Below the pieces are notes generated by a model. The model did not search any database. It worked only from the letters and a program-made list of their open reading frames with translations, and was not told the DNA's origin. A stretch of DNA of 38,799 nt from Chromera velia. Taxonomy: Eukaryota > Sar > Chromeraceae. The DNA is taken from contig JAHBMJ010005849.1 in the NCBI GenBank assembly GCA_018398765.1, positions 1 through 38,799 on the forward strand, written 5' to 3'. A program made the position numbers and the translations under genes. This document shows, piece after piece, positions 1 through 36,288 of this stretch (the first letter of the stretch is position 1; the number at the start of each line of letters is the position of its first letter).

Positions 1-369
1 CCGAGGAGACGGCCGGATGGAGACGGCGGAGACGGCCCCTTTTACTTACCAGGATGTTTCACATGCCTGTTGTTGATACCATTTCATACCGCATGTGACA
101 GAAACCCGCCTGCACAGGCATGCAGTCAAAGAAAGTGGCCATTTGTACATACTCGGACTGATATGCAGCGTCACCGTCCCCCCCAGGAGATTTCCATACA
201 TGTGTGCACTTGGCCGGCATGAGACAACCCGACACTACGAGCGCGGGAACAGATCATTCCTTTCCCTGTGCTGAGGAAGTGTAAACAAGTGACAGCCAAT
301 CCGATCGATCCCTCAATAGCTCAGAAGGCTGATCATCAGCAGTTTGTTTACAGCTACAAAGCAGAAACA
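1..369. other. Upstream spacer, partly candidate divergent first exon
   Basis: This stretch precedes the ATG of the FAD monooxygenase. No confident coding sequence is seen on the plus strand. An in-frame GTG at 268 opens the same frame upstream of the ATG at 370, but the flavin-binding strand starts directly after position 370, so the ATG is preferred. On the minus strand a strong 5' splice site (CCTG then GTAAGT, GT at 49-48) suggests that a divergent gene leaves the window to the left. Confidence 0.5.
50..87 (-). CDS. Possible first coding exon of a divergent gene (partial)
   Basis: On the minus strand an ATG at 87-85 opens a short frame of 12 full codons (starting M-K-W-Y-Q-Q-Q). It runs directly into CCTG followed by GTAAGT, the best-matching 5' splice site in this part of the window. 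The remainder of the gene would lie left of the window. The exon could equally be non-coding 5' leader, because the frame is too short to judge. Its only support is the splice signal plus an open frame; no protein family is recognisable. Confidence 0.2.
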
Positions 370-707
370 ATGAGCCTCCCCAAATGGACCCCCTGCCTCA
401 TTGTCGGAGGGGGTCCCGTTGGTATGACCGTCTCCCTTCTCCTTTCCAAGTTGAGAGTGCCCCACACAATTGTCGACAGACGCGACAAGCTCCCAAGTCA
501 CCCACAAGCTCATTACATCAGCAACAGAACGATGGAGGGTTGGTCTGCTTGCCGGTCGAGAGAACTGAACTTCCGTTTGAAACAGCATGATTGGAGTATC
601 TCTATCTTTGTGCACTCTTGCATTTGCCCGTCTATGTCCTCCTCTCTCTGCGTTCCTGTGTGCAGACCTGTATGTACACTTTTGCATATGCTTGCCAATA
701 GTCATAC

Positions 708-769
<62 letters not shown>

Positions 770-1294
770 GTGTGCGTGTGTGTGCGTGCATGCGGCTGTC
801 CTTCTCAGTGTTCAGGCAGCTTGGAGGTCTTGACAAAGAGGTCCAGGCAGAGATGCCTCCTCTTGGGCAGTGGAGACAGTTTGTGTACTGCACGAGTGTT
901 AAGGGGGGAGGTGGCGGCGGGGGCAGGGGCCCAGGGGACCCTTCTGACAGGAGCCTGATCGGAATCCGAGAGCATTTTGACGGTGAGAGACGGCAGAGAG
1001 AAGAGAGTTCAACAATACAAGAGTGATTTGGCATGCGTTTTTTTTTCTCTTCCTGTTCGGTCTCAACAGTGCGTCCGTTTTTCTCTTCGGTGCGTCATTC
1101 GTGGCTGTCTTTCCAGACACCCATTTTCTCGTCTGTAGACGACCTATGTCGTCTGTATGCTTGTCTGCCTGCAAGTACTCAAAGGAATGACAGAAAGAAG
1201 CAAAGTGCATCTGCTCTCTTCTGTGTAGACGAAATTGACGAAGACTGAGAGAGATTGAGACCATGTCGGAAATCGTTTTTCTGTCTGGGTTGCC

Positions 1295-1344
<50 letters not shown>

Positions 1345-4300
1345 CTATCCGCCTGCCTTCCTGGCTCTCTGTGTCTCTCCTGTGTGCTCGTGTACATGTA
1401 GACACATTTTGATCGAGTCTGTTGTCCCGTCTACCGCTCAGATTATTTCACGCAGGCCAAAAAGGACACGTACACTGAGAGATGGAGTCCCTGTAAAGTC
1501 GGCCACCTCGCACAACACAAGCTCGAACCTATACTTCGGAGACGGCTGGAGGAAGAGATGAGGGGGCAGAAAGCAAAAGCAGGTGGAGCGTCTGACTCTG
1601 CACTTGTGACGGGGTCCGAGCTCGTGTCTGTGGAGGTGAGAAACGCGGGTGTGACAGCGCAATTCCGGGATGCAACCACAGAAGGGCCAAAACGGACAAA
1701 TGGGGAAAACGATTTAATTTCTCCCCCCACGGATGTGGAGGACCCTTCGTTGGTTTCTTCTGTCGAGACTCCTCTTTTGATTGCTGCTGATGGTGCTCAC
1801 AGTCGAGTGCGCAATCTGCTGTCTTTTGAGATGATGGGGAACCCGTGTCTCCAAAATCTGATCAACGTGTACTTCACCTCAAAGGAACTTGGGAGGATGG
1901 CGAAGGAGCGACCTGGGATGCTGTACTTCGTGTTCAACCAGAGAAGCGTTGTCGTGTTGGTGGCCCACAACATGGAGGGAGGGGAGTTCGTCGCGCAGAT
2001 TCCGTGGTTTCCCCCTCAGCAGGTCCGTCAGGGAGTTGGCGCGCCTAGTTTTTTTTGTGTGTGAGAGAGAGAGGGGGGGGAAGGTCGGGGAGTGAATTCG
2101 TTTAATTCAATGAGCGAGGCAGCATTGGGGATTCGAGGGATCAGAATCCAAAACGAGACAGAGGAAGCGCCCCGTGTGAGATCTAGGGTGTGTTTGGACT
2201 GGGAGAGAGAGGTTGTTCATTCGACTTGTTGATTCACATTAGTGTGTTCTGTCTGGAACGCTTGTCCTTGAAATCTTGAATGAACCTTGCAGACAGTCGC
2301 AGAGGACTTCTCAGTCTCCAAATGCACCGAGATCATCCACTCAGTTGCGGGAGCTCCTCTCTCCGATCTGCACATCACGGTGGGTGGGTGGGTGGTTTCG
2401 GGAGTGAGTGTATCGTGATTTGTTTGGTTGGTTGTTCAGCAGTCGTGGGGGGGGAAGTGGATTGAGGGGAGATGGGCGAGGACGGGGGTTTTCGTGCGAG
2501 GTCGACTTGCCCGTGCTTATGATGATGCAATGTGGATAGGATAGGATGCTTTATCTGTTGAGAATATGATGCGATGTGATGCATGGGTGCGTGCAGAACA
2601 TTCGGCCATGGAAAATGTCTGCGGAGGTCGCACGGAGGTTTGTTGAACCTGAAAGTTGTCGGGTCATGCTGGCGGGAGATGCAGCGCACCGCCTCCCTCC
2701 CTCAGGTCGGTATGCACATTTCCTTACTTACTGTCAGATAGAAAGCAGGAACGGAGGTCTCATGCAAGGTTCAGCCTTTGGGGGGATTGTTTTGTTTGAT
2801 TTCTAGATGGGTGCCTGCCTTCCTTTTTGTCTGCCTTTCTCTCATATTCTCAAATGAACAGGGGGGATAGGATCACGGAGGTCACCTGCTTTTTCTGTAT
2901 GGGATAGCCATCCGGCTGCTGTGTAGACAGTCAAGACGATTCGCATCAAGGTGCATGTGCATTTGTATTTGTTATCCTCCCGCTTCCTTCTTTCTTTCCT
3001 TCTCCTCTTGCAGGCGGCTACGGGATGAACTTGGGCGTTGCGGATGCCCTGGCACTCAGCTGGCGTGTGGCGCAGATGTTTCATAGGGGAATACATACCG
3101 ACATGTGAGTCTGTAATTAAGTCGGCAACTGTATAAGGATGCTGCCAGTGAATGTTTCTGCTTTCATTCGTTGGCATTTCCTTTCGGGTGTTTCTTTGCA
3201 CTTTCGGCTGCACTTTCCCTCCCTCCTTCTGGGGATTCTCTCCTTCCTGTGTGACCTGTCTAAGCGAAGGTGTTTGCCTGTCTCTCCTTCTGAGGAGTTG
3301 CAGGCGAGAGGATCGGGAGAAAAGTGGAGGATCTGGGGCTGGGTTGAGTGAGGACAGCAGGAGGCTGCTGCTGTCTTACGAAGTTGAAAGGCAGCTTGCT
3401 GCACAGGTGAGGGAAGGGAGTCGATCGTCTCTCTCAATTGACACAGAACAGCTGAAAGATGGAACAAACTCTCTCAAAGAGAAAAGAAGAGAGCATGGGT
3501 GCGAGGAGCAGAAGTCAGAGAGAAAGAAAGGGACTTGAGACAGGAAGAAGAGAATGCACGAACAACGCCTTTCCACCTTTTTTTTTGTCTTCGGCGGTCT
3601 CCAAGCACTCTCGCTGCTATTTTCCATTTATGTCACCATATTCACCCGTTCTTTTTTGAATTGAATTGATTCGAAGTCAAGTCACTCACTCACAATGGCA
3701 TGCAGGTTTCCTGTTCCTTGCCTATGCAGCTATGACCGGACTTGTTGAGAAACAAAAAAGAGTCGTAAACAGACAGACAGCAGAAAAGGACTTCCCTCCT
3801 GTCCATCTCGCCCGCCCAATTTGTCTTTCTGTATCTTGCAATTTGTCTTTCTGTATCTTGTGTGTGTGTGTTTCGATCGCATTCCCTCCCTCCCTCCTTC
3901 ATTCAGTACAACTGCACCGTGGCTGACCACAACTTTCGGTGTTCCCTCGACGTGGCGGCGCTCCTCGGCCTCAACTGGGGTCTGGCTCAAGGGACCGCCT
4001 CCACAATTGCATCGGCAGCAGGTCTTTTTCTCGACAATTCAGGGAGGGCAGGCAAAGAGAAAGGCAACGGAAAGGAAGGGAAAGGATTTGCCCCAGGCTC
4101 TTCTTCTTTTCTCGAGACTGCAGCACGAGAGACCCTCAACTTTGCTCTCTCTGTGGGGCGTCTCCAGGTACCCGCGCTTCAATCTCTCAGCGTCGTTTGG
4201 GAAAATAGACGACAAGCGGTTGACGACTATCTGGCTGACAGGCACAAGAACCTGAACCTCATCAGCCCGGGTCTAGACTTGGCATTTGCCTATCGGGATT

Positions 4301-10755: not shown

Positions 10756-13700
10756 TCATCTCATCTGCTGCTGGGGCCACTCTGCTGCAGCCCCGGTCGT
10801 TTGCTGTACTGAAGGAAACACCGTGAGGGCGGGGGGTAGAGGGGCCTGGACAGGAGGGACAGCCGTGTACGATATGTCTGTTGGATCGGCATGGCTCAGC
10901 ATCTGTCTGCCAGGAGACCCCTCAGGACGGGGTGCAATGGGCACTCGTGCCGCACAGGTGCTTCCCCTCGGGAAACCCCCAACAGCCCCCCTCGACTCGG
11001 TAGCGGCAAAAGGAACGGCAGCTGGCCCATGCGACAGCTGCGGGGATCTGGTCGGCTCTCGTTGGGCTGCTGGAGAGTCTACTCCTCCCCGTGCGTGTGC
11101 ATGTGCGTAACCTCCTGGAGAGGCCGCAAAGGCCCCCCCGTGAACTTGGGCGCTCGCAACGGGTGCACCGACGAGACCCGACGGGCGGCCGAACTGAAGA
11201 GTGGACTGCTGTGCGAAGGAATTGGGGAACCTTTGAATTTGATGAGACGGGTTTCCTCCTGATAGAGGATGAGGGTGGGCAGCATAGAGGGAAGAGGAAA
11301 AGGGAACGGCCCTGCTGAGGTTTGTGCCTGCTGCTGCTGCTGTTGCAACATTAGAATGACCGGAGGGGAGAGGGAGCGACGGAGCGAGGTGGTAGGGTTC
11401 TGAGGGAAAACCCGATTGCCCTGCGGGGGCATTACCCGAGTCGTCAAGTGTCATCCACTCACTGCCCTCCCACTCCTCCTCCTGCTGAGGACCGTCGGCA
11501 GAAACGTGAGGCAGGCTGGGCTGCTGGGACGAGGAAATGGTTTTTGGAGCTGCTGCAGCTGCGACGTCTGCTGAGGGAGATGGCGCTATTTTGTCAGATC
11601 GAATGGAGATCGAAGAATCATCGCGAAGATTGGCGAGCCCCTCCTTCTCCTGTTTCCTTTCTTCTTTCTCTTCCTGCTTCAGCTTTTTTATTGGACGACG
11701 GGAAGGGGGCAGGTCGGACTCATTCCCTGTCTGCTTTTGCTGCTGCTCACTGCTGGTTTTTGCAGTTGCGCTCGCTCCCCCCGGACGTCCACGCATGGAG
11801 TCCATGATGGCAGAAAACCTCACGGAGGCCCGACGGCGAGATCGCGTCAGGCCCTGCATCGACGCTAGCTGCTCCTCTGAAACCCGAGCTCCCCCCCCCT
11901 CTTCCGTCGCAGTGCTTGCTGCTTTGGGGGAAGGGGGGGGCGACTTTCGCTTTCGGAAAGCGACACGTGATTCGGAGTCGGGCGAGGTTGTTGTCGGCGC
12001 TGTGACGACAAAGCGGTTTGCCGTACCATCGAGGGGGTGCTGAGAGGAGACGGGAGAGTGGTCTCCGACTGTGGGAAACGCACCGCTCCTTGCTTCTGAG
12101 ATGAGTGCCTTCGCTTTTGCAGCAGCTGCTGCAGCATCGTATGAGCCCCAGGCAACTGGTGAGATCCCGGGGAACTCGGAAGGAGACTGGGAAGAGGCGG
12201 CGGTAACGGAGGCAGCACTGGCAGCGGCTTCTGCGGCTTCTCGGGCTTTCCGCCTTGCAGTTGCTTCCGCTCTTTTCTTTTTCTTCTCAGCCGCTACCTC
12301 GGCTTCCCGACGTGCTCTCTCTGCTGCTGCTTCGGCTTCTTTCCTTGCCTGCTCTTCTTGGGCTTCTTTTCTTTTCCTTCTCTTCTCAGCAGCTTCTTCT
12401 CTCTTCTTCTGACGTTTTGCTTCTTCCTCCATCAACTTTGCCCTTTCTTCCTCCTCCTGCTTTCTCTTTACTTCCAGTGCCTCGTGTTCTCTCTCCCACC
12501 GCTCTTGCTGCTGCTGGAGGTACTTCTGTCTTGCTACCTCTTTCTCAGCCATGCGCTGCTCCTTCTTTTCCTTTCGCTGCTGTTTAAAGTCCTCCCACGA
12601 AACCCCCAAACGTGCCGCTCTCAAACGGCGACGCTCCTCACGGTTTGCGCGCATTCGGGCTCTTTGAATCTTTCGCCACTCGTGGCCATCCACTAACCTC
12701 TGTCGTCTTCGCCTGCGCTGCTCCTCCTCTTTCCGCGCCTCTCTCTCCTCCCCTGTGAGCTTGGCAATGCGCCCGCTCTTCCTCGTGGCCGTCGAGGCGG
12801 CCGCAGCACCCCCCGTAGTGACTCTAGGGGATGGGGGCACTGCTTCCTCCTCCCTTCCTTCTTCCCCCCCCTCTCCTTTTGCTTGTTGAGTCTGCTGGGT
12901 GACCTGATTGAGGAAATCGGTGTCACCGAAGACACAGAGGGAGAGGGATTCATCAGGAGGCGTGGAATAATCGGCCCAGCCAATCGAGTCTGTCATGATG
13001 CGCTCGGCCTCTTTGGCTAGTCTCTGCCACTCCTTCAACTTCGGTTGTTTTTTCTGCTCCTCTGCGGTCTTGTTGTACGGCCATTTGAGGGATGTCGTGG
13101 GCCGTTTCTTCTTGCCGGACTTGGACACTTCTGCCCCTCCTTCCGTCTCCTTCTCTCCCTCCTCCACTTTCTCTTTATCACCCCCCTCAACACCCGGGAG
13201 TTCGACAATCGCCGGAGCTGGTGACCCATCCTGGGTGGCGGGCTGGTCGGGGACTGCGGTTGTGTCAGTGCCGGATGGAGGGACGGGGGGGGATCCACCG
13301 TGAGGGATCGGGTCTTTTGGATCGCACGCAGACTTGTCGTCTGGGTCTGGGTCTTGGGAAGGCGGAATGGGTTGGAGGTCTGCTGCCACACCCGGCTTTG
13401 CGTCCTTTATAGCAACACCCCCCTCCGCTCTCCCTACTGTAATCTCTGCCTTCCCTTCTCTCTCTCTTTCTCCTTCGGTGCCCTCCTCACCCTCCTGCGA
13501 CACTCTGTCCACACGTATCGACTCTCTTCCTCCACTCCCTCCCAATCCCTCCTGCAAAGCTTGATGACACGAGGGGGGCTGCTCAGACAGAGCGCTGTTG
13601 TCCCCCGACTTTGACGGGGCAACGGAAGGGGGGGGCATGTCGGCAGCGTCTGCCATCAGAGCATATTCTACGTCTGCTGCGGCGGCTACTTCGACTTCTT

Positions 13701-16374
13701 CGACTGGGGACACACTGTTCGGGGGCGGGGGATCAGAAGACGAATTTGAGACAGAAACCGTCGCAGCTGCAGCGGAGGAAAAGGGTGGGTTCTGCTGGGC
13801 AGAGGATGAGGAGGAAGAGGAGGCTGCAGCAGCGGCTGCGTTTGCCACCGTCTCCCGAGTCGACTTTTTGAGAGTCTCTCGGGGCCTTCCCATCTCGTCT
13901 GTGCTCTCCTCCCCGCTTGAAGAGCTGAGACAAGAAGACTCGGAAAGGCAGTTGAAGAGTCGGTCGGAGGTGAATGCTCCGAGAGACCTTCGGCCTTCCT
14001 CCTTCTCCGACTTCTTCTGCTTCATCATGAGCTCATACTCAGAATCAGATGAAAAATCAGAAGATTCATGTCCAGACAAATGCCCCCCCCCATCGTGCCC
14101 TAGCCCTACCGCTTCCAACATTTTCCTCTCACGTTCTTTCTCCTTCTGCAGAAGACGGGTGTATCGGGACCCCGCAAAAAAGAGAGACGCATGAACGGGC
14201 TTGGAGGTTTTCACTCGTCTCTTCAGTGCTTCTTCTTCCTGCTTCACATGGAAGGAATCGGAAATGTTGGTCTGGGTTTTCAGGAACGCGAGGGCAATTT
14301 CGTCGTTGTCTTCCTCCTGGGGCTGCGAACATTTGGCGTACTTCTTGTCGGGATTTTTGCTGCAAAACCACTCTCCCTTGCCGGGGCGACTTCCCTTTCC
14401 GGAAGGGGGAAGGCGTCTCCACTTATTGCACTTCTCACACATGACCCAGGTGGAGACTTCCTCTTCTTCTTCGTCCTCAGACTCAGACTCAGACTCAGAC
14501 TCGGAGGAGGAAGACAGGGAATCCGACGAGAGAGAAGACAGCAGGGAGAAGTCACTTTGGACAGTGTCCCACCAGGACCCCTGAATGTAGTTCTTCTGTC
14601 CCGGCAGCCTCTCTGCTCTATTCAGGGCCCACTCGATCTCTTCCTTCGTCGGTTGCCCTTCCTCTGCAGCAAGCAGACAGTCAAAGGAAACAGAGTTGAG
14701 AATACCACCGAGAAAGGGGAGGAGAGCTGCATCGTTTGGCGAAAAAGAGAAATCACGGGCTCCCCTTTGAAGCGAAGCAGACACACCAAAATCTATCCGC
14801 GTGTTACCCTTCGATTGAGAAAAAGAAATGGACGGGATGTACGAATGCAACCGAATCAAGAGTTGTTGGAGGATGTTAATAAAACAACTCCGGGAAGCAC
14901 AACAAATGCAATCGGTTCTCTTTCTTTCTTTATCCCACTTGCGGCACTCTTCCAAAAAGCGGTCAGATTTAAGTCAGAATGATAAAAAGAAAGAAAACAA
15001 GGTCAGACAAACATCAAAAGGGGAGGCGAAAACACGGGAGAGAAAGAAGGAAAAACACATCGTCATTTTGTGCCTTCCCTCCCTCCCTCCCTCTTCTTCC
15101 TGCCTGCCTGCCTGCCTGCCAGACCCGCCACTGACCAGGCTGTGAGCAGCAGTTATGCATCACGTCCGGGTTCATCTCGCACAACCACAGGCTGGTGCTC
15201 TTCTTCTCCTCCTCACAGAGACCCTCGACCAGCAGACGCCATTTGTCGCACCTGCATTCGTGTCATTCATATCGACGCAAGAAAAGAGCGCAATGGGGCG
15301 TGCACAGCAGCTGAAGGGCCGTTCTGTGGGCCAGAGCACCGGGAGAGAGACCAAACAAAAAACACGAAAAAAAACGATAAAAACGAATCGGCCCATTTTC
15401 CCGTATCAACTGCCTTTTCTACTGTTCTTCCTTTTGTTTCGGCCTCACCAACCTGTCGCACTGGATCCAACAGGGTTCCACATGATTCTCTTCTTCTTCT
15501 TCTTCTTCTGCTGCTGCTGCCTCATGACCATGTCCAGTCGGCCCATTCGTCTGCCCATCCTCCTCTCCTTGCCGTGCCGCAGGGGACACGGAAAACCCTG
15601 TATCGGCCTCTCCCGCTGTGCCCGCGGCCTCTGTCGCCCCCTCCTTTGAGGGAACCAGCTCAGAGGAGTCCTGAACACCCGTCTCTTCGGTCTTCACCCC
15701 GGCAGACGATTCCCCCCCCTCCACCTCCACTTCTTTGTTTTTGGCGGGGGCGCCTCCCCCCTCAGCAGCCTCCCTGGGGCTCCGAGGAACAGGGGAGGGG
15801 GGGAGGGAGGGGGAGATGGACTGCGAGGCCGCTTCTGAGGCTGTCGGGGGGGGGAGTGCGGTCGCAGTTGTGGTGGAGGGACCGTTCGGGTCTGCAGAAC
15901 GCGTCTCGTCAATGGCAGCAGCATCGACTGCGTCAGTTCCCATACCTGCATGAAGACACGGAGACCGAAAGAGGGAGGAAAAGTTCCAGGTGGACCGAAC
16001 AAAAGTGGGACCACCAGCGAGAACAAGGAAAACCGAAGTGGTTGAACGAGTGTGGAAAGAGAAAAGGGTTGGAGCAGAGGAGCGTCCTGACGGGGGGGGA
16101 TGGGAACACAGGCATAAAGAACAGTTGAGAGAGACTGCATCACGGATGAGGGAGAAGGAAGATGAGGAACGAAAAGAGGTAGGCAGCAGATTCGCTGACT
16201 CACTCTCGTCTGTGTGCCCTTCTTTTGAGATCTCCCCCTCCTTCTCCTCCTCCTTCACCTTGAGGAGACAAGAAGGCCCCAAACCGTCGGGTTGATGAGA
16301 CGACAGGAGACGCTGACTCATCAGCATCTGCTCGACTGCATTTTGCATCCTGCTCTCCCGTCTGTCGTCAACCT

Positions 16375-16426
<52 letters not shown>

Positions 16427-18453
16427 GCAATTTGACACCTTCACACCGGACAGACAAGTTGTGTTTTCTGTGCATTCTCATACTCCCATTCGTGGTCATG
16501 ATGAGTAAACTGGGATCACCAATGTGCAACCACGCAGTGACTTGTCCGCTGACGCAATCCACAACAATTGGAAGTAAAACCGAAGGAGCAAAACCTGAGG
16601 GTCAGAAAGAGGCAGAGTGACAATCAAACAAAGAGAGAGACAGAAAAGCCCGCCGCCTGCCTCCTCCTCCGTTTCACCAATTCGTCCTTTTCAGCTTTCT
16701 CCCCTCGAGGTGACACACCAGGCAGACAGTAGACACAAAGACACACGCAGATAGGCAGACAGATAGACAATGAAGCAAACACAGAGGCTGTGAACGAACC
16801 AGTTCATCGACTGACGGTTGACTGACCAACCTGTGTGCGCACCCATCGTCTCTGGTTTTGGATCATCCCCATGATCAGGGAGGGGCCTCTCTCCTTCTTC
16901 TCTTTCTTTTCTTCTTGCACCCCTTTCGCCCCCTTCTTCTTCAACGAGAGCTTTTCCTTTTTTCCCTTTGCAGCATTCTTTCCACCCCCCTTCTTCTTCC
17001 CCCTCGCCGTCCTTCGAGCTTCTCTCTTCTCTCGTCTTTCCTGCCTCTCCTTCTTCGCTTCCTCACGCAACAAACGAAGTTCCAACAGCCGCTTTCTGCA
17101 TTTCTCATGCGTGTAAATTCCGTTCTCATCTTTGTACAGATCAGAGCATTCGGACTCCTCGTCACCATCAGAGAACCGGGCACGGGAACGGCCCCGACTC
17201 CCCCGGGGCCTCTCAACCCGCCGAGAGGACGAGGCGGCAGCAGCAGCGGCAGCGGCGGGCTGTTGGGACTTGGTGGCAGAAGGGGGGGGCATATCGGAAT
17301 CGGCAATTGCCCCGTCGTCGTCTACGTCTGCTGTGCCCTTCTCGTCCTCTTCCTTTCTCCCTCTTTTCGACTGTTTGCGTGAATGGCGGTGAATTAAATT
17401 GTGTTCACGGTCGCACTTCCACTCGAGCAGCTTGTGCCGATAGAGTATCTCTGCCTTCTTTTTGGCTTTGATCGGGTCTCGACGGCTGGAGTGGTTGCCT
17501 AACCATCTCTGGAGCTTCTGCTGCACAGCCCACAGCTGGGAGGCGGTAGGCTGATACGACTGCTTGACTAAGTACCATAGGGTGTCGGCTGCAACAGACC
17601 GTTTCTTCAGGGCCTCTGCCTGAAGGTTCTTGAGCTTGGAGGGGACCTTGAAATCCCTCTTTCTATACACGAATGCACAATGCCGCTCCCCTGAGCCCTG
17701 CATGTTGAGGGTGATCCTGTCGACCACGTCGGCGTTGAGGGAGTACAATAAGTTGAGGTCCTTCCGGAAGGAGACGTAGATGAAGCAAGTCTCACTCTTG
17801 TTGAAGAGCTCAACGAACAGATCGATCATGAACCCAGGCATGGCGAGGTCAAAGGAGAACATGTGGGTGACCGGGTCGAAGGTCTTCAGGGTTGTGGCAT
17901 CGGCACAGAGGAAGCCGATATTCAGGGGGGGAGGGTGGATCAGGGGGCTCTCTCCCTTCCCTCTTTGATGCTCGACACACTGGATGAGGAGGTCCTGTGT
18001 GTGTTTCAGGGAGAGGTGGAAGCAACCCTCGTCCATCTCCACTCCAATGGAAGCGCCCACCTTTGTCCAGGTGGCGCAGGTGATGCTCGGAACTCCCCGA
18101 CCACTTCCGACGTCACAGAAGACAGAGTCTTCTCTCAACTCGTATTTCTCCTTCAGGAGAGCAACGAGAACAGACACAGAGGAACGTTTGTTCTCTCCAT
18201 ACATTCCTGCGTCGGAAGTCATCACCTGCTGTGACTCTCCCTTAAAAAGCTTTTCACTCCATGGCCAGTATTCGCACGAAGTGGGTGCAGATGCCCCCGC
18301 GACTAGGTGAGGCAGAGCATCGGAATACTCGGGAATGGGATTCTCCTGCGACCCTCGGGCCTCAGAAGCGGAAAGATCCGGAGCAATCACAACGTCCGAT
18401 TCTTGCGGACAACTATCGTGGGGAAGAGAGGCACTTGTGCCCTCAACCTCCAT
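10756..18453 (-). CDS. DOT1-like methyltransferase fused to two CW zinc fingers
   Basis: Five inferred exons on the minus strand: 18453-16831, 16372-16204, 15945-15453, 15251-15136 and 14663-10756. They total 6309 nt and encode 2102 aa; every junction keeps phase. Residues 84-87 (MYGE) and 115-120 (VGSGRG, with IGVEMDE at 136-142) match the D1 loop and motif I of DOT1-type SAM-dependent histone methyltransferases. Residues 201-206 (FDLAMP) would be the post-motif region. A first CW zinc finger spans about 757-800 (W757, C760, C763, W766, W784, C786, C796 or C797) and is assembled across an intron. A second spans about 873-912 (W873, C876, C879, W882, W899, C901, C912). CW domains read histone H3 lysine 4 methylation, so a nuclear chromatin-modifying role is inferred. 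The rest is acidic Ser/Glu repeats, poly-Ala, and a long Lys/Arg/Glu coiled-coil-like stretch at about 1440-1615. Further 3' exons cannot be excluded. The methyltransferase assignment is less certain than the CW domains. Confidence 0.82.
16376..16426 (-). repeat. (TA)n(TG)n microsatellite forming the 3' end of an intron
   Basis: Read on the sense (minus) strand, TA units pass into TG units that run straight into the acceptor ACAG at 16376-16373 of exon 2 of the DOT1/CW gene. No conventional pyrimidine tract remains. Confidence 0.9.
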
Positions 18454-19443: not shown

Positions 19444-26234
<6,791 letters not shown>

Positions 26235-27987
26235 TTTTACTTCCTTCCTTCGTGCCTGTTGTTCTGTTCGGTCGTGCGGGTGGGAACTCTTGTCTTGTTT
26301 GGTGGCAGAGGGGGGAGAGAACGGCGGATGGACTGGTTGGTTGGGAGCGTTTGTTGGTCTCTTTTTTCTCTCTTTTCTCCCCGAAGGTGCGAGCGTGTGA
26401 GTGTGTGCATTCATTCTTTCACTCATTCACAAGTTTCAATTCAAACGCCGGCAGAGGAGGGGGGGGATGACTGGAAGAAAAGGGATACGGAGACAAAGAG
26501 ATTCTTCGTCAGAGAGAAACAGCGAGGCAATGCGAAGGGAAGAAGGGGGGAAAGGGTACGGGATGTTTGCCTTGCTCTCCTGCTCCGCGTGTCTCTTCTG
26601 TTTGTCGCTCTTGGGGGGAAGGCAGAATTTGAAGACAGCCGTCTCTCCTCATTCACTCTTTCTGCCTGCCCGCTTTTTCTGTCTTTATTGTCGATCAGTT
26701 GTCGGCATGATTCTTCCTCCCTTCCTTCCTTCTTTCCTTCGTTTCCCCGAACGAAATTCGCACCTTTCTTCGTTCCGGATTCTCCGCTTGATCGGGTCCC
26801 TTCCTCAATTCCTTGATTCCTTATCGTCCTCTCATCTTTCCCACCCTCGCTCCCACCCCGTGCACGGCCAGGCAAGCACGCAGGCAGGCAGGCGGAAAAG
26901 TGCACACTCACGCATTCGCACACACGTTGGCACACTCACTGACGCACACTGTGTGCACCACCTGTCGGAGAAACGTCCTCGGACCGGATTGAGTTTACAC
27001 GTAGGATAGAACCCTCTCTCTGCCTGATGAAGCTGCTGCGGATTTGTGCTGCTTTTAGTGCTACTTGCACATCGGCAGTTGCCAGTGAACATTTCTAATT
27101 CATCAGTCGACACACCCTTTTATATTCAATAAAATAAAATATAGTAAAAAACTTACAATTTACTGGATCACTTCAAGTTACGATAATATTGATTAAATAT
27201 CGATAGTAGTCAGATTGTTAATTAGATCTGGTAGAATGTGGCCCGGGTACATGTGATACAAGTAGGTGTGATATGATCAGGATAATTAAGATAAAATAAA
27301 TTTTGTATGTTACTAATTTCATGTCTTATATAAAGCAATTGCATATAATTGCATAACGTTAATTACCATAGGTCCATGCAAATGCCCCAGTGGGGCCTAG
27401 GTCGAGGGATCGAATCTATGCAGGAAATACTACTAGGTTGGCCTGAGCCTATATGGCTCACCGGCTTTAACCTCATACATCATCATCATCATCACTTGAC
27501 GAGTTTGTATGCCTTTGAAGCGAACTAGTGACTGAGTGGAGTAAATTAGAAAAATAGTCCTCATATTCAAATTTTAATATTTCTATTAATATTTAAATTA
27601 TATATTTTTTAATTTTTATACCGTATGAGTTTAGTCTTTGCTAAATTTCCTGTCAGTGCTCTTTGCTAAGCTCATTGCCAGTATCTTCAAGTTGTACCCA
27701 TATTGAGCTAAGTCAATTTAATTAAGTTCATAATATGATTTGATTTGAGTTGGTTAAAGCCGCCATTTTAAAGTGACGAGCCGCCTCTGGGACTCTAGCC
27801 AACCATACATAAACATATGACTATATAATATCATTTAATTCCTTTTAATTCAAGATTTAATTTCTTCAAATTCAAAACAGTTTGTATGAAACACAACTTT
27901 TGTCAATCTCTCGGACTTCCGCCTCTTTTTATTGTTGACCATACAGTTTCAGCCTAACTTTTCGGTCCAACAAATAAATTACTCTTA
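26235..27987. other. Convergent spacer, right half AT-rich
   Basis: This lies between the 3' ends of ARP1 (+) and the F-box/UIM gene (-). Positions 26235 to about 27100 have gene-like base composition with TTCC/TCTT-rich patches and no convincing coding frame; this probably includes the ARP1 3' UTR. From about 27110 to 27990 the sequence turns strongly AT-rich and holds a (CAT)n run near 27477-27496. No gene, tRNA or complete transposon is recognisable. Confidence 0.55.
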
Positions 27988-29262
27988 TCAACGCTGGCGA
28001 ACCGCCCATACCTGCCAGGTAGCAATGCTTTTGTAAAACACGGCAAGACGCTGCCCTGAGAGAAAAGCGCAGGCAACTTCGCGAGACTGGGGGTTGTCTG
28101 CCCTCCCTCCTCGTTTCCCTCGAGAGACGCGGGGCGGCAGGAGCCCCCTTACCACCACCTTGCTGCTTCGTCTCGCCTCGCCATTTGCCTCCCGAGTGTT
28201 TGAAGCGGAGGGGCTGAATGGACCAGGGGAGGGTGAGTGTGGATTGGAGCGGGGATTCAGCCTCTCAGGACTGGATGGGAATGGTGAGGAAGAAGAGGGG
28301 TGCGGGGGAACGGGTGAGGAAGGGGAAGAAGAAAAGACACTTTCTACCGCACGGTTTTCGTTCGGACTGGACTCCTCGTCCCCGTGCGGCGGACTCCTTT
28401 CCCTCTCCCCATCTCCGACAATTCCCTCCTCAACAGGACCTGCAACCCCCCCGCATGAACTTGAACTTCGGTCTTCAGGAGGCGGTGAGTCAGCCACCAA
28501 CAGTTCTGGTGGAATCTCTACCCACTCTCCTTCGTCTTCTTGCTGCCCTCCTGTTCCTTTTTTGTCACCTTTCCCCCCAGTACCAGTTTCTAGAAGGGAT
28601 ATCTGCATGGCAAGGGAGAGACGGATTGCTTCCTCAAGATCCGCGGCCTCATTGCTCTGCATCACTTTCTGTTGGTGTCTGAGAAGCTCTGACTGCTTCT
28701 GCTGTTCCTGTCGTCGTCCGGCTGCCTCCACTTGCTGTCGTCTCTCTGCCTCTCTCTGTGCAGACAGAGGGCGGGGCAGAGAGGCAGTCTCTGAAGACAA
28801 ACCCACAACATCTGCCCATGGGCTTCTTCTCATTCTATCCTTCTGCTGCGGTCCCTGTTGGGACTCTGATCCTCTCCTACTTCCCCCCTGTCTCCCCCCT
28901 CCACTACCACGCGCACTTCCACCACCACCCATGAGCGCATTCACATTCGAGTGTGGAAGGTGCATCTCTTCTGCCATCATCCTCCCCACTCGACTCTTCT
29001 TTCCCCCTCCCGATCCCTTCCCCATTCCCATCAACATCACGTCACCCTGAGAGGCCCCCTCTGTGAAGTCGTCAATCAGTTGGAGGTCTTCATGCTCGTC
29101 TTCCTCCTCTTCCTCGAACTCATCACTCTCACCGTCCCCCCGATCGGAACCCTCACGATCACCCGACCCCACAAATCCCCTTCCCTTCCCTGACCTTCCG
29201 CTCCGAGGCGCAGAGGCTCCTCGAAAGTCAAGCTCGAACAGCTTGCAGTGCCTACACACACA

Positions 29263-31194: not shown

Positions 31195-33306
31195 TACACA
31201 CAGAAGCACGACTCTGCTTGGACAGACAAAGAGGGAGAGCGACAGAGACGCAAGTACACACATAGAGAGAGAGAGTGCGAGAGAAAAGGAGAGATGGGGT
31301 GCGTGGTGGACGGGCGGACTGAGATGCACGCCCGATCCTTTTCAAGCAGACGCTTCTAATTCGCCCACAGGAATTTCCTTTTTGAGGCAGGGGGAGAGCC
31401 CAAGGCATGGGCGTGAAAGAGCAGAGAAGAAAAAAGACACGAAATACACGTTGAGAGGGTTAAAACAGAATCAAGAAAACAAATGAGGGACTGACTGTGC
31501 ACGATCAGATGCGCAGACGGTCACCCAGATCCCCGACAGTCCCTCCGTCCTCTTCCCTCCCCCCTCCCTCTTCTGTGTCCTCGCGGTAAAATCAAAACGC
31601 CCACCCGCACAGCACTGAACAGACGAGACTGCACAGCGAACGGTGAGTACAGGTAACCAGTCAGCAGCCTCAGTGCTCCTCCCTGTTTCAGTTTCATCGC
31701 ATGCCGTCCCTCTCTTCACCTCTGGCCCCTCTAGGCCTTCTGCAGTGAACTCTCTCGGAACGGCAGAACACACCACACACCCACGCGACCACGGTGGGAC
31801 ACCCCACCTCGGCCTCCCCCCACTTCCCTCCCCTACCTGCACAGGGGCCGGAGTGACAGACAGCCCGAGAGCAACCGACCCCTCGAACCGCATCAACACG
31901 CGACCCCCCTTCCCTCCTACTTTCCCCGCCGTTTCTTCCCATGAGGCACCCACCAGCCCCTGTGTGCCGTTTCCACTTTCAGAAAGATCGACTGAGAAAC
32001 TCATAGGGTTGTCAAAAGAAGAAGAACAAGTCGGAGGTCCTGAGGGTGAATTCAAAGCTCCTCGGAGGAACCCTGAAGCCGTGACGTACAAATGAAAAGC
32101 CTCAGTCGACCCTGACTGAGCGGATGCGTGAGGTTGAGAGCCGATAGGAAGCTTTCTCGTGTTTCTCGACACCCTACAAGCATGCAGAAATCCCTTTGCA
32201 CCCCCCCACATGAAGATGTCTACTCTCTCTTCAATCAACAACCAACGCTCTCCCCCCATTAAGTTTGGATCGTTCTTGTCGATTGCGTCCGGTTTCAGTT
32301 GGGGCCTGTGCAGGACAACAAGAAGAAAGTCAGGAAGTTGGGAGGGAAGGCCTTCCTTCTTCTCATTCTTCACTTGTGCTCTGAAGCCGCTAGAACGCCC
32401 CCCCTCCCCCCCCCGTTCTCCATCTCCTCCTGCTTCAGCAGCAGACGATGAAGAAGAAGAAGAAGATGCTGTACTCCCTTCCATGTGTTCGTTGGCAGCT
32501 GATACAGGCAGCCAGCAAGCCGCAGAAATTTCCCACCCATCTGCATCCCCCGACACCATCGATGAAGCTTTCTCACCCGTCTTAATGGAAGGACGAATAA
32601 GAAGGGAACGCACAGAAATCTCCTCCACAGGTGCCGCCCTGCCCGTCGCGTTCATAGGAACCAACGACAAACCAGAAGACGTCACGTAACACAGGGGAGG
32701 GGGTGGGTGCGTGTAATCAGCCCGAGCGGATTCCAAAACAGAGGTGAGGGCAGGAACATTCACCTGGCTCGGTTCTGGCTCTGATTGTACTGCCTTCCCG
32801 TCCTCTCCACTGAACGCAAGCTGGTGGGAGGAACGGGGGGGGAGGAGCGGTCCCTCTTCTCGAATGATTTCGAGGGGACGAGCCCGCTTGGCACCCTTTC
32901 TGGCCCCGCCCGACTCCACTTCTGCTGCTTTCCCTGTCAACCTAGTGGTCCAACTTCTTCTGAGCTCCCCGCGGGACCAGGAAGAAGAGGGACGGCCGAG
33001 TTCGCAGAGACGGGAAAAGTTCCAGGGAAGACGGACGGTTGGAAAGAGGGAACAATCAAGGCTGAGAGATCCCAGGGGTGTGTGCTGTTTCTGTTTTTGC
33101 ACCCCACTGGCAGACTTTTTTGTTTTCCGTTTGACGAACTTTTCGAAAGCGACGCTCTCCCAGAGGAGACGGAGGTGGACACATCCTTGGCGGACTTCCT
33201 TCGAGACAAGGCAGAACCTCAGGATGGATGGAAAGGGAAGGAACCCAAGAATTCTCTCTAGGCAGACCTCAGGAGCCTCCTTCAAGAACTCAGGAAGCAA
33301 ATGCAT
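27988..33306 (-). CDS. F-box-like / WD40-like / UIM protein, putative E3 ligase receptor
   Basis: Six inferred exons on the minus strand: 33306-31496, 31070-30766, 30418-30244, 29787-29698, 29462-29409 and 29251-27988. They total 3699 nt and encode 1232 aa. Residues about 4-57 resemble an F-box (LPEFLKEAPEVCLERILGF, then FPSILRFCLVSKEVR and LWESVAF), which would bind SKP1 of an SCF ubiquitin ligase. Residues about 767-792, encoded mostly by exon 4, resemble one WD40 blade: IHACAFDG, RRVLTVHQDD, SGIVWDLG. Residues about 1015-1028 (ADLEEAIRLSLAMQ) fit a ubiquitin-interacting motif. The middle of exon 1 and the C-terminal third are Ser/Gly/Pro-rich and acidic. A substrate-receptor role is inferred. 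The exon 3 donor is ambiguous: GT at 30252 would keep frame and remove 9 nt. Exon 5 (54 nt) is supported only by phase and splice signals. Additional blades may be too divergent to see. Confidence 0.72.
29255..29301 (-). repeat. (CT)n(TG)n microsatellite forming an intron 3' end
   Basis: On the sense (minus) strand CT units pass into TG units that run directly into the acceptor TAG at 29254-29252, before the last exon of the F-box/UIM gene. Confidence 0.93.
29594..29680 (-). repeat. Dinucleotide repeats in intron 4 of the F-box/UIM gene
   Basis: A CT run at about 29594-29614 and CA-rich imperfect repeats at about 29650-29680 as written on the plus strand. On the sense strand these read GA and TG respectively. 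Confidence 0.85.
30007..30125 (-). repeat. CA-rich imperfect microsatellite, intron 3 (TG on sense strand)
   Basis: Interrupted CA units over about 120 nt, in the intron between exons 3 and 4 of the F-box/UIM gene. They read as TG on the coding strand. Confidence 0.85.
31098..31202 (-). repeat. CA-rich microsatellite, intron 1 (TG on sense strand)
   Basis: Interrupted then perfect CA units. On the sense strand this is a TG tract that ends about 30 nt before the acceptor TTGCAG at 31071 of exon 2. Confidence 0.9.
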
Positions 33307-33930
33307 CTTCTTAATTGCTGGGAGACTTCGTGTATCAGACTGGAGACGGAGACAGGGTTACTAGGCAACAAAACCTCCCTCTGCTGAAGGATTCTAATCT
33401 CGCAAGAATCCCCAACTCTTGTTGATGATGAATGGACAGCGCTGAAAAGCGTCTTACTGCAGAGAAGTTGAGAAAGAGACCCTGTGGGGTACACAAATGA
33501 AGGAAGAGAAGCAGAGTTATATGGAGACGGCAATCATTCCATAATTCGTCGCGCAGACCTCGATCTGCTTGACGAATAATCGCGCGGCTAATGGCCCCGG
33601 AAAGCGTAACGTGGGGCACTTAAAAAAACCGGAAAGAGAGCTAGGCTGTCATGCATGTATTAATACAGCTAGCTCGCCGTGCGCGCGCGCATGCAGTTCA
33701 GCTGTCGAGACATGTCGAGACGCAGTGACGTGAAGAACGGAATAGAACGGAAGAGACACATGTAGCTTATATTAATATAAACGTTGTTGATGTGTCAATG
33801 CACGTTGAGGGATATCACCAAGCTGGGACAGAGGGCCATATTTGATCTGTTCAAAAGATTCATCTGGGCAAGTCTTGTAGAAAGACAGAGCCTTCGCAAA
33901 GAGACAAACTCGACTGATCGATCAATCACA
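33307..33930. promoter_or_regulatory. Divergent intergenic region with paired 10-bp direct repeats
   Basis: The start codons of the F-box/UIM gene (-) and the small Trp-rich protein gene (+) are 624 nt apart and point away from each other. Visible elements are GTCGAGACAT/GTCGAGACGC at 33704-33723, TGACGT at 33726-33731, GAACGGAATA/GAACGGAAGA at 33735-33754, a GC alternation near 33680, and a TATA-like ATTAATATAAA near 33770. An ATG at 33790 is in frame with the downstream gene and would extend it by 47 codons if used. Regulatory roles are inferred. Confidence 0.45.
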
Positions 33931-35732: not shown

Positions 35733-35837
35733 TTAGTTGGGTCATTCAAGGAGTATCTTGCTGGAGCATTTGTTCACATGCTTCCCTTATAGACTATTGG
35801 ACTCGATGCCGTTAGGTGCCGTGCGATTGGCCAACGC

Positions 35838-36288
35838 ATGCCGGGGGCGAGTGGGGTGCTTTTTGCCCCCCTAAAGCGGCGCATTTCCGCAAAAAACTCG
35901 TTCTCATAATTGGTAAGGAGTTAGAAGCTGAAACTTTGTGTAAGAAGACGTTGTAACGATAGAAAAAGAACTATGGAACAGATTTTTTATATCATTTCTA
36001 GAAACATAGGCTGCCATACAAATTTTTTGATTTTGCGGTCATTTTTTAACGGTTTTTAACAGTAAGAAAAACGGTATGAAACTCACAAAATTTATATGGC
36101 AGCCTATGTTTCTAGAAATAATATAAAAAATCTGTTTCATAGTTCTTTTTTTATCGTTACAACGTCTTCTTACACAAAGTTTCAGCTTTTAACTCCTTAC
36201 CAATTATGAAAACGAGTTTTTTGCGGAAAAGCGCCGGTCTCCTATGCAGAGAGGGGAGCAAAAAGCACCCCACTCATGCCCCCGGCAT
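35838..36288. mobile_element. Fold-back (long inverted repeat) element, non-autonomous
   Basis: Two arms of about 190-200 nt (35838 to about 36027, and about 36088-36288) are near-identical inverted copies. Shared landmarks are ATGCCGGGGGC at the outer ends, GTGGGGTGCTTTTTGC, GCAAAAAACTCGTT, AATTGGTAAGGAGTTA, GTGTAAGAAGACGTTGTAAC and TTTCTAGAAACATAGGCTGCC. The arms differ by scattered substitutions and one short insertion near the right outer end. The central loop of about 60 nt has no coding capacity. A target-site duplication cannot be assigned cleanly because the ends are self-complementary; a 2-bp AT is possible. It is most likely a MITE or fold-back transposon; a structured-RNA source is an alternative. 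Confidence 0.75.

What the first reader, a model, noticed from the sequence alone, without database searches (positions are those of the whole stretch)
10756..18453. One gene joins a DOT1-like methyltransferase to two CW zinc fingers
The spliced frame links an N-terminal domain with MYGE and VGSGRG signatures (DOT1-type) to two separate CW domains about 115 residues apart. All four introns keep phase and the sum of exons is an exact multiple of three. CW1 is split by an intron between its first two zinc-binding cysteines and is restored only by splicing, which argues for a real single gene. DOT1 is known to methylate H3K79 and CW domains to read H3K4 methylation. A writer carrying two readers of another mark would couple these marks in one polypeptide. 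I do not know of this architecture in model eukaryotes.
Basis: partly seen in the sequence, partly recalled or inferred. Interest (0 to 1): 0.78.

Follow-up and report, generated by a model that had tools for sequence, protein, structure and literature searches.

The report
DOT1-like methyltransferase carrying two CW domains
A single protist gene joins a distant relative of the chromatin-marking enzyme DOT1 to two zinc-finger modules of a type that reads another chromatin mark, which suggests one protein that reads one mark and writes a second, although what the enzyme part methylates is not known.

Summary
The minus-strand model (five exons, 18453-10756, four GT-AG introns, 2102 aa) translates without an internal stop. 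A dispersed paralogue in the same assembly (C488:20969-28612, 2128 aa, 75% identical) keeps all five exons, the intron phases and the MTase-CW-CW order; dN/dS is 0.18 for the MTase, 0.06 for CW1, 0.20 for CW2. Both CW domains are real; CW2 is closest in the PDB to the ASHH2 CW.

The DOT1 label needs qualifying. Pfam DOT1 just passes its cut-off (24 vs 23 bits), over profile positions 22-84 of 205. DOT1 motifs X, I and II are present, IV and VIII are absent, III and VI are unclear. The domain belongs to a family of at least four loci here that share a different C-terminal half. The genome's H3 keeps K4 and K79.

Best reading: a CW-guided, DOT1-related chromatin methyltransferase of unproven substrate. 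DOT1 expansion with new domain partners is published for brown algae (PMC13076208), hence a new variant of a known kind. No usable structure was obtained; the organism was not identified.

The parts
16831..18453 (-). exon 1 (residues 1-541): MTase domain and basic region
   Evidence: matched by C488 exon 20969-22621
16373..16830 (-). intron 1 (458 nt, GT-AG, phase 0)
16204..16372 (-). exon 2
15946..16203 (-). intron 2 (258 nt, GT-AG, phase 1)
15453..15945 (-). exon 3 (its end encodes the start of CW1)
15252..15452 (-). intron 3 (201 nt, GT-AG, phase 2), splits CW1 between C760 and C763
15136..15251 (-). exon 4 (most of CW1)
14664..15135 (-). intron 4 (472 nt, GT-AG, phase 1)
10756..14663 (-). 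exon 5 (CW2, low-complexity and charged C-terminal region, stop codon)
   Evidence: no Pfam family at E<=1 in residues 927-2102
17644..18243 (-). DOT1-like class I methyltransferase domain, residues about 71-270
   Evidence: Pfam DOT1 24 bits over residues 84-150; dN/dS 0.175 over residues 71-300
18193..18204 (-). MYGE, residues 84-87 (DOT1 motif X, VYGE)
   Evidence: motif list from PMC10951340
18094..18114 (-). DVGSGRG, residues 114-120 (DOT1 motif I, DLGSGxG)
18037..18045 (-). GVE, residues 137-139 (DOT1 motif II, GxE)
17836..17856 (-). SFDLAMP, residues 200-206, family-specific; lies where DOT1 has motif IV (NNFAF)
   Evidence: conserved as FDxxMP in 4 of 4 family members; no NN in either alignment to DOT1L
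17686..17697 (-). GSGE, residues 253-256, family-specific; lies where DOT1 has motif VIII (VSWT)
16843..17097 (-). basic region, residues 453-537, net charge +22 in both paralogues (segments of 85 and 90 aa)
14659..15469 (-). CW1, residues 757-802, spliced from exons 3, 4 and the first bases of 5
   Evidence: zf-CW 31.5 bits for the exon 4 part alone; dN/dS 0.06 over residues 753-803
14311..14451 (-). CW2, residues 872-918
   Evidence: zf-CW 59.9 bits; ASHH2 CW E=5.2e-14
14272..14310 (-). post-CW2 segment, residues 919-931, holding I923, F927 and Q931, which line up with ASHH2 I915, L919 and Q923
   Evidence: alignment for I and F; Q by counting eight residues on; ASHH2 residues from PMC9043364 passages

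Best explanation
A single nuclear protist gene encodes a chromatin-associated methyltransferase. Shown by sequence: one spliced reading frame, conserved in a paralogue; an N-terminal AdoMet-binding domain of the DOT1-like kind; two CW zinc fingers with all zinc ligands and both binding-pocket tryptophans. Inferred: the CW domains bind the H3 tail methylated at K4 (CW2 possibly preferring K4me1, as ASHH2 does); this docks or orients the enzyme on nucleosomes of active or primed genes; the basic region after the catalytic domain adds nucleosome affinity; the catalytic domain methylates a residue on the same or a neighbouring nucleosome, H3K79 being the first candidate but not established.
For: Gene model. 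Best Pfam family is DOT1 for 4 of 4 family members. CW domains. Selection: dN/dS 0.175 MTase, 0.06 CW1, 0.20 CW2, against 0.26-0.74 in nine other segments; the post-CW2 segment (0.173) and residues 1401-1600 (0.205) are as constrained as the domains. Histone H3 with intact K4 and K79 in three near-canonical copies. Precedents: ASHH2, where a CW domain sits in a histone methyltransferase (PMC9043364 passages), and T. brucei ZCW1, a CW reader that interacts with the methyltransferase SET26 (PMC8638923 passage).
Against: Clear DOT1 similarity stops after motif II: motifs IV and VIII are absent, III and VI unclear. The only structure prediction failed (pLDDT 33). With the four-member profile an RNA methyltransferase (5bxy, E=0.00069) scores level with a DOT1 chain (9ne1, 0.00073); METTL5 (0.0029) and yeast Dot1p (0.0041) follow, so a non-histone substrate is possible. 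No expression, localisation or activity data.
Confidence: 0.6

Rival explanations
1. It is a true DOT1 orthologue: an H3K79 methyltransferase whose H3K4-methyl readers couple the two marks.
For: Pfam DOT1 above cut-off; motifs X, I, II; both MAFFT runs set FL (residues 181-182) against motif III and FSF against the FAF of motif IV; T. brucei DOT1A/B carry Ser/Ala at the first Asn of motif IV and human DOT1L N241A still makes H3K79me2 (PMC10951340 passages), so motif IV is not fully rigid; H3K79 is conserved.
Against: Motif VIII and the NN of motif IV are not recognisable; residues 198-598 match no Pfam model at E<=1. C556 (32.1 bits) and C1568 (28.3 bits) score higher with DOT1, so this family need not be the H3K79 enzyme.
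Confidence: 0.25
2. The catalytic domain is a DOT1-like enzyme with a different substrate (another histone residue, a non-histone chromatin protein or RNA), and the CW domains only anchor it to active chromatin.
For: A family-specific C-terminal half (FDxxMP ... FNxS ... SFR ... SxE) is conserved in 4 of 4 aligned members, and clear counterparts of FDxxMP and SxE are not seen in DOT1L; an RNA methyltransferase scores level with DOT1 in the profile search.
Against: DOT1 is still the best Pfam family for 4 of 4 members, the next family reaching E about 0.01; MYGE is a DOT1 motif.
Confidence: 0.45
3. The methyltransferase domain is catalytically dead, and the protein is a tandem-CW reader scaffold with a degenerate DOT1 domain.
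For: Loss of motif VIII and of the NN of motif IV; a 'degenerated DOT1 domain' is named for a brown-algal DOT1.1 gene (PMC13076208 passages).
Against: The AdoMet-binding motifs are intact in 4 of 4 members and the domain is under purifying selection (dN/dS 0.175).
Confidence: 0.1
4. Two neighbouring genes (MTase in exon 1; tandem CW in exons 2-5) are wrongly joined.
For: No transcript data; exon 1 is open to a stop that follows eight codons past the donor.
Against: That stop is absent in C488, donor and acceptor of intron 1 are kept in both copies, and intron gaps are not coding-like.
Confidence: 0.07

Closest known systems
DOT1/DOT1L/Dot1p (H3K79 methyltransferase, PF08123)
   Same: MYGE, DxGSGxG and GxE motifs; class I AdoMet fold region; a basic stretch C-terminal to the catalytic domain (the DOT1L comparison is recalled)
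   Different: No NN of motif IV and no VSWT (motif VIII); family-specific FDxxMP and GSGE elements instead; carries two CW domains
T. brucei DOT1A/DOT1B
   Same: Divergent DOT1 enzymes in a protist, with Ser/Ala at the first motif-IV Asn (PMC10951340 passages)
   Different: Proven H3K76 activity; no CW domain known to me (recalled)
ASHH2/SDG8 (CW plus SET histone methyltransferase)
   Same: CW domain in a histone methyltransferase; CW2 is closest to the ASHH2 CW (5.2e-14) and has I/F/Q where the ASHH2 alpha1 helix has I/L/Q
   Different: Catalytic domain is DOT1-like, not SET; two CW domains
Expanded DOT1.2-DOT1.5 subfamilies of brown algae
   Same: Lineage-specific DOT1 expansion with novel domain associations (PMC13076208 passages)
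   Different: Other lineage; zf-CW is not named in the main text (0 occurrences; figures not seen)
Dinoflagellate Dot1 expansion
   Same: Numerous Dot1 proteins in an alveolate group (PMC4751559, section 23)
   Different: Domain partners not given in that section

Membership tests
DOT1 (PF08123) | Passes Pfam gathering score | tested here: met
   24 vs 23 bits, but only profile 22-84 of 205. Over the cut-off in 3 of 4 family members; C3694 at 21.5 is below
DOT1 (PF08123) | Motif X (VYGE) | tested here: met
   MYGE 84-87, V to M; invariant in 4 of 4
DOT1 (PF08123) | Motif I (DLGSGxG) | tested here: met
   DVGSGRG 114-120; DIGSGRG or DLGSGRG in relatives
DOT1 (PF08123) | Motif II (GxE) | tested here: met
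   GVE 137-139
DOT1 (PF08123) | Motif III (F(V/L)) | tested here: inconclusive
   Both MAFFT runs set F181-L182 against the FL of DOT1L (FL in 3 of 4 members, FG in C1383/C2332); by eye ADA (186-188) could instead match the GDF loop, without the F
DOT1 (PF08123) | Motif IV (NNF(L/A)F) | tested here: not met
   No NN in either MAFFT run; FSF stands against FAF there
DOT1 (PF08123) | Motif VI (Gx6K) | tested here: inconclusive
   DOT1L GGRIVSSK falls in or beside a gap; SFRK is nearby
DOT1 (PF08123) | Motif VIII (VSWT) | tested here: not met
   GSGE at that place, no W
DOT1 (PF08123) | Methylates H3K79 | not testable with these tools
   Substrate lysine present in H3; activity needs an assay
DOT1 (PF08123) | DOT1 fold of the catalytic domain | tested here: inconclusive
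   Single-sequence AlphaFold2 model pLDDT 33; no fold search run on it
CW zinc finger (PF07496) | Passes Pfam gathering score | tested here: met
   CW2 59.9 bits; CW1 31.5 bits from exon 4 alone; cut-off 27.5; 94.5 bits together
CW zinc finger (PF07496) | Four zinc-binding cysteines | tested here: met
   CW1 C760, C763, C786, C797; CW2 C876, C879, C901, C912
CW zinc finger (PF07496) | Two binding-pocket tryptophans (ASHH2 W865 and W874) | tested here: met
   CW1 W757, W766; CW2 W873, W882
CW zinc finger (PF07496) | Binds H3K4 methylation | not testable with these tools
   Needs peptide binding
ASHH2-type CW methyltransferase | SET catalytic domain | tested here: not met
   No SET match in the scanned residues 1-400, 198-598, 743-1000 and 927-2102; residues 599-742 were not scanned

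The most novel reading that the evidence does not exclude
A lineage-specific class of DOT1-derived writers has replaced much of the substrate half of DOT1 and gained tandem H3K4-methyl readers. H3K4 methylation would then directly steer core-histone methylation (H3K79 or a new site) in one polypeptide, a route of mark-to-mark coupling distinct from the H2B-ubiquitin route of opisthokont Dot1.
Probability: 0.3. Interest if true: 0.72.

Novelty: new variant of a known kind. Interest (0 to 1): 0.52.

Why it matters
If the CW domains guide the enzyme, H3K4 methylation and a DOT1-type mark would be coupled within one protein. Toxoplasma, Plasmodium and C. parvum are reported to lack DOT1-domain enzymes (PMC9487757 passages). 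If this organism is a chromerid, which was not shown, its DOT1-like set would help date that loss. The family's divergent C-terminal half also makes a concrete test of what DOT1-like domains can methylate.

Tried and rejected
Relatives in virus contigs and in bacterial and archaeal genomes: none confirmed by tblastn. NCBIfam: nothing near its cut-off. AlphaFold2 on residues 60-300 without an alignment: pLDDT 33, discarded, no fold search run. hhalign of the four-member profile with human DOT1L: 51 columns, probability 80%, ending after motif II. Plastid PsaA/PsaB for naming the organism: no match. Separate genes: rejected. Alleles instead of paralogues: rejected, dS about 0.39, and no flank homology with C488:15001-33000 except short repeats. 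Naming the organism from assembly size: Chromera velia is published at 193.66 Mb in 5953 scaffolds (PMC4501334 passages); G000 has 177.8 Mb in 4040 contigs; compatible if small scaffolds were dropped, but not shown.
Full report
Observation. The five minus-strand exons give 6309 nt, 2102 residues plus one stop, with all four introns GT...AG and the frame preserved. Intron phases are 0, 1, 2 and 1. Intron 3 lies between C760 and C763 of CW1.

Is it one gene? The window's own assembly (G000, 177.8 Mb, 4040 contigs) holds a second copy of the whole gene on contig C488, positions 20969-28612. It has five exons with the same phases, 2128 residues and 75.3% identity over 2036 aligned residues (1533 identical). 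The homology of the window with C488:15001-33000 (the stretch compared) runs from 240-340 bp upstream of the start codon to the end of the coding sequence; outside the gene only short repeat matches are left. This is therefore a gene-sized dispersed duplication. Overall dS is 0.39 and dN/dS 0.39. By segment dN/dS is 0.175 (MTase), 0.06 (CW1), 0.20 (CW2), 0.173 (post-CW2), 0.205 (residues 1401-1600) and 0.26 to 0.74 in the other nine of 14 segments. Gaps between the two copies are multiples of three in 59 of 83 exon gaps and 10 of 45 intron gaps. Nucleotide identity over aligned bases is 0.82-0.92 in the five exons and 0.78-0.84 in the four introns, a small difference, so the splice sites rest on kept dinucleotides, kept phase and gap lengths rather than on a drop in identity. 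The stop that would end an exon-1-only protein in the window (after 549 codons) is missing in C488, where the frame runs open through 702 codons. No transcript data were available.

The CW domains. zf-CW scores 94.5 bits over two stretches. In the whole assembly, searched in six frames without splicing, five zf-CW matches passed: two on C3920 (this gene), two on C488 (the paralogue), one on C3391; a second, improvised CW query touched the same three contigs. So two of the three CW-bearing genes found have this architecture; the count is a lower bound. CW2 is closest in the PDB to the ASHH2 CW (5.2e-14). CW1 is closest to MORC3 (7.9e-7). Both keep four zinc cysteines and the two tryptophans equivalent to ASHH2 W865 and W874 (PMC9043364, passages seen). 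ASHH2 CW binds H3K4me1 more tightly than me2 or me3, and I915, L919 and Q923 of its alpha1-helix region contact the ligand (same passages). CW2 has I923, F927 and Q931 at the matching spacing; CW1 has I810 and L814. Reading of H3K4 methylation, with CW2 possibly preferring me1, is an inference from these residues.

The methyltransferase domain. Pfam DOT1 passes its cut-off narrowly (24 vs 23 bits), over profile positions 22-84 of 205. Three further sets of exons in the assembly encode the same kind of domain: C488, C3694 and C1383/C2332, the last probably one gene broken by a contig end. DOT1 is the best Pfam family for 4 of 4, with E-values from 1.4e-07 to 1.8e-04, in each case over the N-terminal part; C3694 falls below the cut-off at 21.5 bits. 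Two of the four were joined by hand from exon translations. The four share 49 invariant columns, including GMYGE, the GSGRGVPS stretch, FDxxMP and SFR. Residues 198-598, from just before FDLAMP, match no Pfam model at E<=1. hhalign against human DOT1L aligns 51 columns and stops after motif II.

PMC10951340 (passages seen) lists seven invariant DOT1 motifs. X, I and II are present. VIII (VSWT) and the NN of IV are not. III and VI are unclear. In favour of DOT1, both MAFFT runs set F181-L182 against motif III and F199-S200-F201 against the FAF of motif IV, with NN in a gap. By eye, F199-M205 could instead lie opposite DOT1L F239-F245, so that N241 and N242 become F201 and D202. Neither placement gives an NN motif. 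The same paper notes Ser or Ala at the first Asn position in the T. brucei enzymes, and that human N241A still makes me2, so loss of that Asn alone would not exclude DOT1 activity. The divergence of the substrate side still leaves the H3K79 assignment uncertain. In the PDB profile search an RNA methyltransferase (5bxy) scored level with a DOT1 chain (9ne1), followed by METTL5 and yeast Dot1p.

Context. H3 in this genome has intact K4 and K79 in three near-canonical copies (90-94% identical to the query); three further matches are divergent, two of them with in-frame stops. SET domains are plentiful (22 matches). Contigs C556 (32.1 bits) and C1568 (28.3 bits) carry DOT1 matches that score higher than the window domain (C556 35.5 bits when joined by hand), so the genome has other candidates for H3K79 methylation. 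A basic region (residues 453-537, net +22, kept in C488) follows the catalytic domain; a comparable lysine-rich stretch aids nucleosome binding in DOT1L (recalled).

Literature. DOT1 expansion is not new in itself: numerous Dot1 proteins in dinoflagellates (PMC4751559, section 23 read), and brown-algal DOT1 subfamilies with novel domain associations (PMC13076208, passages). I recognised no paper on a DOT1-CW fusion among those listed (16 of 16; 15 of 15; 30 of 162; 15 of 188); I saw listings and abstract starts, and passages of PMC8559703, PMC8638923 and PMC13076208. The library misses most subscription papers and the brown-algal figures were not held, so this is weak evidence of absence. DOT1-domain proteins are reported absent from Toxoplasma, Plasmodium and C. 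parvum but present in C. muris and C. andersoni (PMC9487757, passages). H2B ubiquitin is the known route that stimulates Dot1 in opisthokonts (PMC13289920, passage).

Verdict. The label should be 'DOT1-like methyltransferase of unknown substrate with tandem CW readers'. It works plausibly like ASHH2, a writer carrying a CW reader; it is not shown to be a member of DOT1 proper.

Noticed in passing
G000 C488:20969-28612 (L006, L007): Full-length paralogue of the window gene with identical exon phases; a dispersed gene-sized duplication.
   Followed up: yes
G000 C3694:about 13450-16200 (L017, L018) and the ends of C1383 and C2332 (L019, L020): Further members of the MYGE/GSGRGVPS methyltransferase family, intron-rich; the assembly-wide zf-CW search gave no match on these contigs.
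   Followed up: partly
G000 C556:9389-9568 (L009, L021) and C1568:25835-25957 (L010, L022): Two other DOT1-like loci scoring higher with Pfam DOT1 than the window domain.
   Followed up: partly
G000 C3391:64363-64485 (L003, L008): The only other CW domain found in the assembly. I saw no methyltransferase motif in the printed frames around it; no profile search was run on them.
   Followed up: partly
window 35836-36008 and 36105-36275: Two copies in opposite orientation of a roughly 170-bp repeat about 97 bp apart, also present on C488 near 16540-16716 (87-94% identical); looks like a small transposable element.
   Followed up: no
window 31474-33357 (-): Open frame of 628 aa with an F-box domain (24.1 bits, cut-off 20.5).
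   Followed up: no
window 223-1023 (+) and 1402-2061 (+): Two open frames matching FAD_binding_3, probably exons of one FAD-dependent monooxygenase gene.
   Followed up: no
G000 C1557:13535-13834 (L026), C1899 (L027), C821 (L028): Divergent histone H3 matches; C1557 may be a centromeric-type variant, and the other two carry in-frame stops.
   Followed up: no
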